Assembly (NCBI GenBank): GCA_937129725.1
Contig: CAKZNR010000108.1
Location: 1 to 34,485, forward strand
DNA length: 34,485 nucleotides
Reading direction: 5' to 3'
Source: an uncultured Cellvibrionales bacterium
GTDB taxonomy: Bacteria > Pseudomonadota > Gammaproteobacteria > Pseudomonadales > GM7GCV1
A program made the position numbers and the translations under genes. Below, piece after piece: positions 14,703-18,452 of the stretch (within the stretch, counting starts at the first letter, position 1; each line of letters begins with the position of its first letter). The notes below the pieces were generated by a model that saw nothing but the letters and a program-made list of their open reading frames with translations, ran no database searches and was not told where the DNA came from.

Positions 14703-16136
14703 ATGACAAAACGCACCAAAATTATTGCCACCCTCGGCCCCGCCAGCTCCACTGAAGAGGCCATCGAGCGCCTGATTCTTGCCGGCACGGATGTGTTTCG
14801 CCTGAACTTTTCCCACGGAACCCAGCAAGAACAGGTTGCACGGGCGGAACTGGTTCGCCGTATCGCAGCGCGGCATAACAGGTATGTTGCCCTTCTGGGT
14901 GATTTGCAGGGCCCAAAAATTCGCATTCAGGAATTTGCTTCGGGGTTTGTGCAGCTCGAACCCGGACAGGACTTTTGCCTCGATACCCAGCTTGCCGCCG
15001 ACGCGGGCGACTCAAGCCAAGTGGGCGTGCTTTACCGCGATCTGCCCAAGGATTGCGAGCCGGGCAGCCTGTTGCTGCTTGATGATGGCCGCCTTGAGAT
15101 GGAAGTTCAGTCCGTCGACGGCAATCGCATTAACTGCCGGGTTGTCACCGGCGGCAAACTGTCCAATAACAAGGGCATCAACCTGGCTGGTGGAGGGTTG
15201 TCTGCGCCCGCGCTGACAGAAAAAGACCGATCCGACCTGACTTGCGCCGCCCAGGCACAGCTGGACTACCTGGCAATTTCCTTTCCAAAGTCGGCCGACG
15301 ATATGCGTGAGGCACGAGAACAGGCCATTGCTGCCGGCTTTGCGGGGCGTCTGATCGCCAAAATTGAACGCTCTGAGTCAGTTGCCTCGGAAGAAGCCAT
15401 GGATGCGATTATTCTGGCATCGGATGCAGTAATGGTTGCGCGCGGTGACCTGGGTGTGGAAATTGGCGATGCACAACTGGTTGGCATCCAGAAACGCCTC
15501 ATTCTCAGAGCCCGGCAACTGAATCGCATTGTAATTGTGGCTACCCAAATGATGGAATCCATGATTGAGAGTGCATTGCCAACGCGAGCTGAAGTATTTG
15601 ATGTGGCCAACGCTGTGCTGGATGGCACCGATGCCGTCATGCTCTCGGCAGAAACTGCCGTGGGCGCGCACCCCCACAAGGTGGTAGACGCCATGGCGCG
15701 GGTGATTCGCGGCGCCGAACGTGAACGCATTACCCAACAATCACAACACCGGCTTGACCGGGTGTTCGATAGCGCCGACGAGACCATTGCCATGGCTGCC
15801 ATGTACGCAGCCAACCACATGAAAGATATCAAGGCGCTGGTGAGTTTGACCGAGAGCGGTACCACCCCCTTGCTGATGTCCCGAATTCGGTCGGGGCTAC
15901 CTATCTTCGCTTTGTCGACGCAGCAAAGCACGCTGCGCCGCTGCGCCCTGCTAAGGGGTGTTCAGCCGGTCGAATTTGAAGGTTGCGATACCATGGCCGA
16001 TACCATCAGGCTCGCTTTTTCACAGCTTTGCGAGAAGGGTCACCTGCAGCCCGGTGACCGGGTCATTGTCACTATTGGTGATCAGATCGGAGAGAGCGGC
16101 CGCACCAATACACTGAAAATACTGACGATTGGCTAA
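14703..16136 (+). CDS. pyk: Pyruvate kinase
   Basis: Transfers phosphate from phosphoenolpyruvate to ADP; last glycolytic step, cytoplasmic tetramer. The 477-residue length suits bacterial PykA-type enzymes without the extra C-terminal domain. Seen in order: TKIIATLGPASS at the start, RLNFSHG (~residue 33), the B-domain from ~70 to 170, the active-site Lys in LIAKIERSES (~residue 221), VMVARGDLGVE, and TQMMESMI, then a C-terminal regulatory domain. It diverges from the glucosylglycerate unit, which draws 3-phosphoglycerate from the same pathway. Its stop overlaps that of the convergent nuclease gene in CTAA. Confidence 0.97.
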   Translation: MTKRTKIIATLGPASSTEEAIERLILAGTDVFRLNFSHGTQQEQVARAELVRRIAARHNRYVALLGDLQGPKIRIQEFASGFVQLEPGQDFCLDTQLAADAGDSSQVGVLYRDLPKDCEPGSLLLLDDGRLEMEVQSVDGNRINCRVVTGGKLSNNKGINLAGGGLSAPALTEKDRSDLTCAAQAQLDYLAISFPKSADDMREAREQAIAAGFAGRLIAKIERSESVASEEAMDAIILASDAVMVARGDLGVEIGDAQLVGIQKRLILRARQLNRIVIVATQMMESMIESALPTRAEVFDVANAVLDGTDAVMLSAETAVGAHPHKVVDAMARVIRGAERERITQQSQHRLDRVFDSADETIAMAAMYAANHMKDIKALVSLTESGTTPLLMSRIRSGLPIFALSTQQSTLRRCALLRGVQPVEFEGCDTMADTIRLAFSQLCEKGHLQPGDRVIVTIGDQIGESGRTNTLKILTIG

Positions 16137-17065
16137 AGCCGAGTATCCAGATCCTCCAGGATCAGACTAAGCCGCTGCGCTGCCAGGCTGATGCGCCCGG
16201 CAGAGACATAACGTCCATCCTCAAGATAGGTCGGATCGGGCGACTGGTTTTCTCTGATGCTATACGCCAGCCGCGACTGGGCCAGCCCCTCCGCCAACCA
16301 ACTATCCAACCTCATATCCGGGTCAAACTGCTCTGGCATATGACTGTCCAGCGCCTGCTTTAACGCGGGGTATTCGTCGTAGCGGTCAAACAGCCCAACA
16401 CCCGTATCCCACAGTGCATGCAGTGACTGGGGACAACGCCCCGCCGCCAGCGGCCTGGTCGCGCAAAACAGGTTGCCACCCAGATCGTGCCGGCAATTTT
16501 CGCTAACCCGGGTGATGGTGTGCATGGGCTGATGTATGTCGCCAATCATGTGCACAAGAAATGACAGCACCAGAGCCTGGGCGATTTTGCTGTCGGCCTG
16601 CTGCCAGGCCTGCTGTAGTAATGGTATGACACGGACCACATCCCACTCGGGTGATACCTGGCAGCTCGAGGGCGACAGGGAACCCTCGTTGATGGCCTGG
16701 TTGGTGTAATGCCAGCTGGATGTATCCTGATCGGCCAGTGGCTCGAGCGCGGCTGGCAACCTGGCATCGAAGCGCTGGAACAGCTGTCCCAGGGGTTCGT
16801 CCCGAACCCAATCCGGAAAAGAGGCAATTTTGGCGACATCGTTGCTGGAACCAAAGGCGCGCAGGTTCACCATGCGACGATCAAATTCGAAGCGGGTTTC
16901 CAACTCGCGTGCGATGCTTTCCAATTCACGCGACTGAGCGCTGTCGATCTGATCCATAGCCAGATCGACAATAAGAACATGGCCGTCCTGGCTCCAGGCA
17001 GACGCCAGCAGTGGTGTACAGGCCAGTGTCAAAACAGCCAGCCTTGTAAACAGGAAGTGCTTCAT
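16133..17065 (-). CDS. Secreted S1/P1-family nuclease
   Basis: A 310-residue zinc-dependent single-strand nuclease/3'-nucleotidase of the S1/P1 type. The signal peptide (residues 1-23) is cut just before W24, whose free amino group and side chain bind zinc in this family; WSQDGH gives the next His at 29. Further metal and substrate motifs are a SSWHYTNQAI block, HMIGDIHQPMHT, a DLGGNLF segment and LHALWD. The protein would act in the periplasm or outside, probably salvaging nucleotides and phosphate. It starts 30 bp past the DnaE2 remnant's stop on the same strand, and converges on pyk with a 4-bp overlap. Confidence 0.92.
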   Translation of the reverse strand: MKHFLFTRLAVLTLACTPLLASAWSQDGHVLIVDLAMDQIDSAQSRELESIARELETRFEFDRRMVNLRAFGSSNDVAKIASFPDWVRDEPLGQLFQRFDARLPAALEPLADQDTSSWHYTNQAINEGSLSPSSCQVSPEWDVVRVIPLLQQAWQQADSKIAQALVLSFLVHMIGDIHQPMHTITRVSENCRHDLGGNLFCATRPLAAGRCPQSLHALWDTGVGLFDRYDEYPALKQALDSHMPEQFDPDMRLDSWLAEGLAQSRLAYSIRENQSPDPTYLEDGRYVSAGRISLAAQRLSLILEDLDTRL

Positions 17066-17095: not shown

Positions 17096-17548
17096 CTAGT
17101 GAAAGTCGCGCGATCCCGGCGCGACATCATGCAGTTCATGACTGCGATCTTCGACATGGCCTGCAATCACATGCACAACGGCCTGCTCGACTTCCACCCG
17201 GCCTTTTACGAATAGCAAACTGGCTGACAGCAGCGGGGCGCGGAATTTCTCCAGCAAGGAGGGCCACACCACCAGATTAATATTGCCCGTTTCATCTTCC
17301 AGCGTAATAAACAGCGTGCCTTTGGCGGTACTGGGCCGCTGACGCCCGGTAACCAGCCCGCCCACCCTGACAAAACTGCCGCTGCGACAGTCGGCCAAAC
17401 TGCTGGCCAGCCGGCAGTTCCTCCAGGGGTGCTGCTCTCGCAGCAGGCTCATAGGATGAGCTCGCAAACTTAGGCCGGTTTGACGATAGTCCTCGCCAAT
17501 TTCCTCAAGCAGCCCAGGCGGACGCAAACGAACGCCATCGTCAGCCAC
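17096..17548 (-). pseudogene. dnaE2: C-terminal remnant of error-prone DNA polymerase DnaE2 (ImuC)
   Basis: Only the last ~150 residues of a protein normally ~1,030 long. It begins where full DnaE2 enters the segment DYRQTGLSLRAHPM, continues through the OB-fold (GLVTGRQRPSTAKG, then ITLEDETGNINLVVWPSL) and ends with the family's natural C-terminus, SRDFH. The PHP, polymerase and fingers domains are absent, so no polymerase activity is possible. A GTG at 17548 could start it, but no ribosome site is needed if it is read after osmC: the osmC stop is one codon upstream in the same frame. Either a deletion relic of an imuAB-dnaE2 cassette or, less likely, a retained stand-alone OB-fold protein; the frame is intact. 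Confidence 0.82.
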
Positions 17549-17551
17549 AAA

Positions 17552-17977
17552 TCAGGCCCCACTATTCTCAATTTCGTAGCTGTGTTCGATCGCAACCCCG
17601 CCTCTGGCCAGCATGATGGAGGCAGAGCAATACTTCTCTGCGGACAGGCTCACGGCGCGCTTCACCAGGGATTCGCGCAAGTTGTTGCCCCGCACAACAA
17701 AATGCAGGTGGATGCGGGTAAAAACCGCTGGTACCTCATCGGCACGCTGCGCGTCGACTTGGCAAACACAGGATTCCACCTGCTGGCGGCTTTTCTTCAA
17801 AATATCGACCACGTCAAAACTGGAACACCCACCCACACCGCTGAGCAGGGTTTCCATTGGTCTCGGCCCCTGATTCTGGCCACCGTGATCCGGTGGACCA
17901 TCCATTAAAACTTCGTGCCCACTGCCTGTTTTGGCAGAAAAACTGGCGTCGCCGCGCCAGGTTACTGAAACCTGCAA
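17552..17977 (-). CDS. OsmC/YhfA-family thiol peroxidase-like protein
   Basis: A 141-residue OsmC-fold protein. The family reduces organic peroxides through two cysteines; here the candidates are the Cys in GVGGCSSFDVVDIL (~residue 51) and that in AEKYCSASIML (~residue 118), both in the usual places. The closest pattern is YhfA, whose gene lies next to crp in E. coli, and Pseudomonas has an OsmC gene beside vfr; the same order holds here. The start is TTG at 17977, supported by a strong AAAGGAG site 8 bases upstream. The stop is followed one codon later, in frame, by the DnaE2 remnant. Confidence 0.9.
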   Translation of the reverse strand: MQVSVTWRGDASFSAKTGSGHEVLMDGPPDHGGQNQGPRPMETLLSGVGGCSSFDVVDILKKSRQQVESCVCQVDAQRADEVPAVFTRIHLHFVVRGNNLRESLVKRAVSLSAEKYCSASIMLARGGVAIEHSYEIENSGA

Positions 17978-18106: not shown

Positions 18107-18452
18107 ATGAAAGCGAAGAAAATTCTGTCTCAGGGAATACAGCCGCCCCGCTCTGCGGATTCGAGTGGCACACCCAACCCTCTGTTGCGCCCAAGCAGTG
18201 CGCCCAAGCAGTGCGCCCAGCCTGCCGCAGTTCCTTGAGCACTGCCAGCATAGGCGCTATCCGGCCAAATCCACCATTATATTTGCCGGCGAAAAAGGCG
18301 AGTCGTTTTACTACATTATTCGTGGCACTGTCACTGTGGTAATCGAAGATGACGAAGGGCGGGAAATGGTGGGGCGAGTATTAAAAGACCTCGAAGAACA
18401 GGGGCTGTTAAGTGTGAGCGGTAAAACTATTGTCGTTTTCGGCACTAGATAA
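18107..18452 (+). pseudogene. Internally deleted crp/vfr gene (cAMP receptor protein remnant)
   Basis: Fused ends of a Crp/Vfr regulator. The frame open from 18165 encodes the first strands of the cyclic-nucleotide domain (HCQHRRYPAKSTIIFAGEKG, then YYIIRGTVTVVIEDDEGREM) and jumps straight to the recognition helix and tail (VGRVLKDLEEQG, then GKTIVVFGTR). The rest of the cAMP pocket, the dimer helix and the first HTH helix are gone. The join is at Arg-Glu-Met (18360-18368), a motif that occurs in both places in Vfr; in the neighbouring intact paralog the two sites are 372 bp apart. The likely ancestral ATG (18107) is out of frame because of a 13-bp duplication. It could still make a 95-residue peptide from GTG 18165, but no ribosome site supports this. 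Confidence 0.85.
18186..18219 (+). repeat. 13-bp tandem repeat (two full copies plus 8 bp) in the crp remnant
   Basis: TGCGCCCAAGCAG occurs at 18186-18198 and 18199-18211, and its first 8 bases again at 18212-18219. Because 13 is not a multiple of three, each extra copy shifts the frame. Removing one copy joins the ATG at 18107 to the cyclic-nucleotide-domain frame, so the duplication is the probable cause of the frameshift. Confidence 0.95.

What the first reader, a model, noticed from the sequence alone, without database searches (positions are those of the whole stretch)
17096..17554. Orphan DnaE2/ImuC C-terminus in frame directly behind osmC
The fragment is a clean, stop-free C-terminal OB region of an error-prone polymerase with its natural SRDFH end, one codon (TTT) after the osmC TGA and in the same frame. 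Either a deletion removed imuA-imuB and most of dnaE2 up to this exact point, or the piece is kept as a small OB-fold protein. Stop-codon readthrough would produce an OsmC-OB fusion.
Basis: partly seen in the sequence, partly recalled or inferred. Interest (0 to 1): 0.58.

Follow-up and report, generated by a model that had tools for sequence, protein, structure and literature searches.

The report
Mutagenic polymerase split into two genes
The small gene behind osmC is the detached tail piece (an OB-fold, probably a DNA-gripping domain) of a mutation-making repair polymerase whose main part is encoded elsewhere in the same genome; the same kind of split arose separately in another bacterial family, so the two parts probably work together as separate proteins.

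Summary
ORF 17096-17548(-), 150 aa, matches NCBIfam DnaE2 model positions 905-1047 of 1047. The same genome encodes the rest: an 876-aa DnaE2/ImuC body (G000:C206:2004-4634) ending just before the OB domain, plus imuA-imuB. The other two genomes held of the genus (2 of 2) carry the same split and the same osmC-OB-nuclease-pyk order. The break lies in the variable linker between (HhH)2 and OB. OB is under purifying selection (omega 0.060; body 0.063). No intein was found. A second, independent split exists in an alphaproteobacterium-like family: 46 of 48 genomes with an OB-less DnaE2 also have a standalone OB gene; 0 of 59 other DnaE2-bearing genomes do. There the OB gene has a LexA-type box 1-4 nt before its ATG in 5 of 5 genomes read. 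The window's OB has no such box and follows osmC, while its polymerase body and imuA have exact boxes. Best reading: a two-polypeptide ImuC with the OB domain supplied in trans. Physical assembly is inferred. Deletion, stop readthrough and assembly error are not supported.

The parts
17096..17548 (-). standalone gene for the C-terminal OB domain of DnaE2/ImuC, 150 aa, GTG start, SRDFH end
   Evidence: conserved standalone in 3 of 3 genomes of the genus
17549..17551 (-). TTT between the osmC stop and the OB start; spacing and frame are not conserved in the two relatives
17552..17977 (-). osmC, the gene directly upstream; OB presumably shares its transcript (inferred from spacing; in G002 the genes overlap by 14 nt)
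16133..17065 (-). S1/P1-type nuclease gene directly behind OB in all three genomes; functional link unknown
   Evidence: PF02265 E 3.6e-27
14703..16136 (+). pyruvate kinase, convergent neighbour; marks the synteny
   Evidence: homologues in L033 and L035
18482..19273 (+). Crp/Fnr-type regulator, divergent neighbour of osmC; with trpC it marks the conserved osmC neighbourhood

Best explanation
The ORF is one half of a split ImuC (DnaE2) translesion polymerase gene. SHOWN: the gene is separated in the linker between the (HhH)2 and OB domains in all three genomes held of this genus, so most simply since their common ancestor. The 874-880-aa catalytic body (PHP, palm/NTPase, fingers, HhH) and the 150-165-aa OB domain are encoded at separate loci, both under purifying selection. 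The body sits behind imuA-imuB in G001 and G002, and at its own locus with its own LexA-type box in G000. OB lies behind osmC without such a box. A second split, at another point of the protein, arose independently in a large alphaproteobacterium-like family, where separate OB and OB-less body nearly always occur together. INFERRED: both halves are translated separately and join without a covalent bond, directly or on DNA and with ImuB, so that OB supplies its function (probably template single-strand binding) to the SOS-induced polymerase in trans. In the window's genus OB would already be present from the osmC transcript, and SOS would raise only the catalytic part.
For: Complementary coverage of one model: bodies 5-894 and 3-893 (G001, G002), 3-896 (G000); OB 905-1047. 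Alignment puts the break in the variable linker. Same arrangement in 3 of 3 genomes of the genus; in G001 both pieces lie on one 81-kb contig. Omega: OB 0.060, body 0.063. Body tree and OB tree each make the three a clade (100/99 and 98/86) beside Parahaliea and Cellvibrionaceae sequences. Exact CTGT-N8-ACAG boxes before imuA (3 of 3) and before the G000 body. Second family: 5 of 5 genomes with standalone OB have an OB-less body, 4 of 4 controls are full-length; survey 46 of 48 against 0 of 59; GTTC-N7-GTTC 1-4 nt before the OB ATG in 5 of 5; a one-mismatch box just before the body start in 4 of 4 read, none in the full-length control. One clade for all split bodies is rejected, p-AU 0.008.
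Against: No direct evidence of binding or of joint activity. Only three genomes show the window's version. OB of the window's genus has no LexA-type box although the body (G000) and imuA do, so co-regulation is not shown there. OB diverges somewhat faster than fused OBs (pairs 57/60/70% against 67/66/74% expected), though within their range. In the second family 2 of 48 OB-less genomes lacked a standalone OB, and 7 genomes had an OB in a short frame without a body row at E 1e-200; some may be contig edges, but G857 (7 contigs) is not explained. The standalone OBs of the second family lack the SRDFH tail.
Confidence: 0.74

Rival explanations
1. The OB piece was freed from the polymerase and now serves another role as a small nucleic-acid-binding protein, for example with OsmC or the S1/P1 nuclease; the OB-less polymerase works without it.
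For: Conserved place between osmC and the nuclease in 3 of 3 genomes; no LexA-type box there. Some DnaE2 sequences are reported to lack an OB domain (PMC3919608, passages).
Against: 40-41 of 42 strongly conserved polymerase-OB columns are kept, and the SRDFH tail with them. In the second family separate OB and OB-less body go together (46 of 48 against 0 of 59), and the OB gene has its own LexA-type box.
Confidence: 0.17
2. Decaying leftover: a fragment of a broken or duplicated dnaE2 that has not yet been lost.
For: OB diverges a little faster than fused OBs. A nearby crp-like gene in the window is truly broken (18107-18452, read).
Against: Stop-free and conserved in 3 genomes at 57-69% identity; codon-position differences 0.39/0.26/0.64; omega 0.060, omega=1 rejected by 88.5 log units. 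No other copy of this OB in the genome.
Confidence: 0.03
3. Trans-splicing: the two halves are joined after translation, as in the split-intein DnaE of cyanobacteria.
For: It is the known way for a split DnaE to work (PMC3919608 mentions intein-split cyanobacterial polymerases, passages).
Against: No intein family in Pfam scans of the three bodies and three OBs of the genus; the body ends and the OB begins close to the natural linker.
Confidence: 0.01
4. Stop-codon readthrough makes an OsmC-OB fusion.
For: In the window osmC TGA, TTT and OB are in one frame.
Against: G001 has an additional in-frame TAG between the genes; in G002 the genes are in different frames and overlap.
Confidence: 0.01
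5. Assembly or binning error in the window's genome.
For: The genome has 274 contigs and is 94% complete.
Against: Two other assemblies show the same split and synteny, one with both pieces on a single contig.
Confidence: 0.01

Closest known systems
[quoted passage not shown]
   Same: All domains are present; the bodies score 1230-1243 bits against a cut-off of 939; imuA and imuB are in the genome; LexA-type boxes at imuA.
   Different: Two genes instead of one; the OB domain is separate and, in the window's genus, without its own LexA-type box.
DnaE2 reported to lack the OB domain (Timinskas et al., PMC3919608; passages read)
   Same: OB-less polymerase body.
   Different: In the passages read the OB domain is treated as absent, and fragments without an active site were removed from that analysis; here the OB is found as a separate conserved gene.
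Split-intein DnaE of cyanobacteria
   Same: A C-family polymerase encoded by two genes.
   Different: No intein; the cut is at a domain linker; in cyanobacteria the protein is rejoined (recalled).
Standalone ImuB-C of mutasome variants (PMC6511836, PMC12926913; passages and section 20 read)
   Same: A mutasome domain encoded either fused or alone.
   Different: Another protein and domain (ImuB C-terminus), described there; here it is the polymerase itself that is divided.

Membership tests
DnaE2/ImuC (error-prone C-family polymerase) | Score over the curated cut-off of NF004225 (939 bits) | tested here: met
   Bodies 1232-1243 bits in G000-G002; OB alone 146.9 bits, below the cut-off as expected for a fragment
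DnaE2/ImuC (error-prone C-family polymerase) | PHP, Pol3, fingers, HhH and OB domains in one polypeptide | tested here: not met
   All domains exist, but in two genes
DnaE2/ImuC (error-prone C-family polymerase) | Conserved catalytic motifs (PDIDxDFEH, LKxDVLALG; their catalytic role is recalled) | tested here: met
   Present in the three bodies (translations); 256-257 of 262 strongly conserved body columns kept
ImuA-ImuB-DnaE2 cassette | imuA and imuB in the genome | tested here: met
   ImuA over the cut-off in G000-G002; ImuB-like gene next to it in all three, IMS domain confirmed for G000
ImuA-ImuB-DnaE2 cassette | LexA control | tested here: inconclusive
   Exact boxes at imuA (3 of 3) and at the G000 body; none at osmC-OB; box patterns are recalled consensus, binding untested
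ImuA-ImuB-DnaE2 mutasome | Proteins act together in induced mutagenesis | not testable with these tools
   needs experiment
Split-intein DnaE | Intein halves at the junction | tested here: not met
   No intein family in Pfam scans; junction alignment
OsmC fusion protein | Open frame through osmC into OB in relatives | tested here: not met

The most novel reading that the evidence does not exclude
ImuC has at least twice become a two-subunit polymerase whose OB module is a dissociable, separately regulated subunit. In the window's genus its supply is uncoupled from the SOS response and tied to the osmC transcript, so that availability of a trans-acting DNA-binding subunit could set how mutagenic the induced polymerase is.
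Probability: 0.4. Interest if true: 0.82.

Novelty: new variant of a known kind. Interest (0 to 1): 0.7.

Why it matters
What the OB domain contributes to ImuC is open, as far as the papers seen here tell. Two lineages that independently moved it to a separate gene offer natural material in which body and OB can be made, deleted or mixed one at a time. It also corrects annotation: such genes read as orphan fragments, and the matching polymerases as OB-less. The near-perfect co-occurrence in one family predicts that an OB-less DnaE2 should prompt a search for a separate OB gene.

Tried and rejected
Deletion in place, readthrough fusion, intein joining, decay and assembly error were tested as described under the rivals. 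Other short-frame OB hits in the class search: five stretches from four genomes were fetched and proved to be frameshifted near-full-length genes, frameshifted remnants or contig edges; the 211-aa frame G561:C22 was not looked at. Two named records with an in-frame stop upstream of OB (L042, L044) are frameshifts inside otherwise contiguous genes. In the order search only the best rows were listed, so shorter or weaker frames among the 215 of 390 matching genomes may be missed; the listed frames of 356-495 aa were not followed further (one search shows L100 and L087, which have the coordinates of the G114 and G185 matches, running off a contig edge). In the phylum search the 453-aa frame of G625 was not followed.

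Weak tblastn hits behind the bodies (the E-values printed ranged down to 0.014; the lists were cut in the output) were treated as chance, so OB remnants were not found but very decayed ones are not excluded. NG86/YN00 dN/dS mostly failed by saturation and was replaced by a codon-model fit, which also rests on saturated synonymous sites. A full-length DnaE2 model from 15 sequences was poor (pLDDT 60.9, pTM 0.41) and was not used, so the OB-body interface was not examined. Literature: nine searches and passages of PMC3919608, PMC12926913 (with section 20), PMC10421592, PMC6511836 and PMC5285347 showed no separate DnaE2 OB gene; only open-licence PMC papers are held, and supplements were not read.

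Full report
THE OBSERVATION. Minus-strand ORF 17096..17548 encodes 150 aa from a GTG and ends in SRDFH and TAG; osmC (17552..17977, minus) ends in TGA one TTT codon upstream and in the same frame. The protein matches NCBIfam NF004225 (error-prone DNA polymerase, DnaE2) over positions 905-1047 of 1047, E 6.8e-43, and the Pfam OB fold PF01336, E 2.9e-11. A 32-sequence AlphaFold2 model has mean pLDDT 84.2 and pTM 0.75, and its best PDB match is M. tuberculosis DNA polymerase 7pu7_A, E 1e-6.

IT IS NOT AN ORPHAN. The window is contig C108 of a 1.98-Mb genome, G000 (274 contigs, 94% complete). OB occurs once there; the next match is the DnaE1-type gene on C73 (27% identity). ImuA is present over its curated cut-off (C110) with an ImuB-like gene beside it (IMS domain). 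A DnaE2 body of 876 aa lies at C206:2004-4634, with PHP, DNA_pol3_alpha, finger and HhH domains and no OB. Three loci thus hold what is usually one cassette. C110 and C206 are separate contigs, so their real distance is unknown.

SAME SPLIT THROUGH THE GENUS. The two other genomes held of the genus both carry OB as a separate ORF (G002 60%, G001 57% identity) in the order osmC, OB, S1/P1 nuclease, pyk. Both have imuA, imuB and then a DnaE2 body of 874-880 aa that stops before the OB domain. In G001 body and OB lie on one 81-kb contig about 17 kb apart, same strand, with OB upstream, so a simple insertion into dnaE2 does not explain the order. The two genomes held of the sister genus (G003, G004) show neither OB nor a DnaE2 body; their only match is DnaE1-like, and no ImuA match over the cut-off was found in them.

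WHERE IT IS CUT. Bodies cover model positions 5-894, 3-893 and 3-896, OB 905-1047. In an alignment with 28 full-length DnaE2 proteins the bodies end after GHRYQARW..GVE and OB begins at DDGV, within the variable linker. Of 42 OB columns conserved in at least 93% of the 28, the three standalone OBs keep 40, 40 and 41; of 262 body columns the bodies keep 257, 256 and 257. No body-like stretch lies around OB at any of the three loci and only weak hits that I take for chance lie behind the bodies.

SELECTION AND ORIGIN. Differences by codon position in OB are 0.39/0.26/0.64 (G000-G001), 0.37/0.25/0.59 and 0.30/0.13/0.66. A codon model gives omega 0.060 for OB, 0.063 for the body, 0.037 for osmC; with omega fixed at 1 the best log-likelihood on a grid of kappa is -1619.1 against -1530.6. 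Synonymous sites are saturated, so these numbers are rough, but neutral decay does not fit. OB identity is slightly below what fused pairs with similar bodies show, within their range. Trees of body and of OB (30 rows each) both unite the three (100/99; 98/86) near Parahaliea and Cellvibrionaceae. osmC with crp and trpC is an old neighbourhood: of the five osmC loci read from outside the genus (G003, G004, G034, G042, G012), crp is next to osmC in four and trpC in three, and OB or the S1/P1 nuclease in none. None of the other 78 dnaE2 loci fetched had osmC in the flank held. OB therefore most likely moved to osmC; nothing suggests that an imu cassette was deleted there.

REGULATION. The 16-mer CTGT-N8-ACAG (recalled gammaproteobacterial LexA box) occurs exactly 4 times in 113,086 bases read (1.65 expected): 1-4 nt before imuA in each of the three genomes and 12 nt before the body in G000. 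None lies at osmC-OB in any of the three. In the window OB starts 3 nt after osmC, in G001 30 nt after it, in G002 it overlaps osmC by 14 nt. I infer that OB is translated from the osmC transcript.

A SECOND, INDEPENDENT SPLIT. A phylum search with the OB alignment (249 genomes, 91 with a match) gave five short-frame OBs (136-169 aa), all in family f243. All five genomes have an OB-less DnaE2 (model ends 938-940) at a distant locus or on another contig, and four f243 controls have full-length DnaE2 and no separate OB. The break lies about 45 model positions further on, behind the DYxxMRLTLRxHPVAL helix. Survey of 129 f243 genomes, one per genus: 56 full-length only; 44 OB-less body plus standalone OB; 2 with both systems; 2 OB-less without OB; 7 with OB in a short frame and no body row at E 1e-200; 3 other; 15 with neither. 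Among genomes with a DnaE2 row, a standalone OB is found in 46 of 48 with an OB-less body and in 0 of 59 without (Fisher p 2.6e-28; the genomes are related, so this is descriptive). 'Standalone' means an open frame of at most 420 aa; some of the 7 may be contig edges. f243 is unnamed; the plasmid hits most like its OB include Dinoroseobacter (Roseobacteraceae, Alphaproteobacteria), so Rhodobacterales is likely but inferred.

SOS BOXES IN THE SECOND FAMILY. GTTC-N7-GTTC (recalled alphaproteobacterial LexA box) lies 1-4 nt before the OB ATG in 5 of 5 loci read. The four split bodies whose upstream I read carry GAACAAAACRTGAAT (one mismatch) 9-31 nt before the start used, and the full-length control behind imuB has none. 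The split bodies read are not next to a recognisable imuB, the control is. A tree of bodies makes each split group a clade (100/100); holding all split bodies together is rejected, p-AU 0.008.

MECHANISM. Shown: one polymerase, two conserved genes, twice. Inferred: OB works in trans on the body. The close pairing in f243, SOS-type boxes on both halves there and unchanged OB-specific conservation in the window's genus favour this over a new role for OB. The window's genus differs in that only the catalytic side has an SOS-type box. Binding and joint activity are untested.

RARITY. In the order, NF004225 searched in 135 genomes shows the body/OB pair only in G000-G002 among the rows listed. In the class search (203 genomes, 62 with a match) the short frames that I examined were frameshifts or contig edges.

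LITERATURE. PMC3919608 (passages) reports that several DnaE2 lack the OB domain and removed fragments without an active site. PMC6511836 (passages) and PMC12926913 (passages, section 20) describe a standalone ImuB-C. No separate DnaE2 OB gene was seen in these, nor in the listings of nine searches. This is not proof of absence.

Noticed in passing
window 18107-18452 (+): Remnant of a crp-like regulator gene: its start and end read like the intact 244-aa gene at this place in G002 (L004:2504-3238), but the middle is missing and a short duplication shifts the frame.
   Followed up: partly
window 16133-17065 (-): S1/P1-type nuclease directly behind OB in all three genomes of the genus and not found near osmC in the five osmC loci read from outside it; it diverges faster than osmC and OB (44-57% identity).
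   Followed up: no
L135:4635-4834 (G000:C206, behind the DnaE2 body) and L126:8987-9677 (G002, between imuB and body): Repeat-like non-coding stretches next to the body gene; possibly related to the rearrangement. Not analysed.
   Followed up: no
L161 and L164 (second family), near the OB gene: Standalone OB sits head to head with a 2Fe-2S ferredoxin-like gene, close to aspS, in the two loci whose ORFs were listed; gene names by eye.
   Followed up: partly
G816 and G841 (second family): Genomes with both a full-length DnaE2 and a split pair.
   Followed up: no
L142 (G561:C162) and other contigs of G561: One genome with four DnaE2 C-terminal matches, some of them fragments.
   Followed up: no
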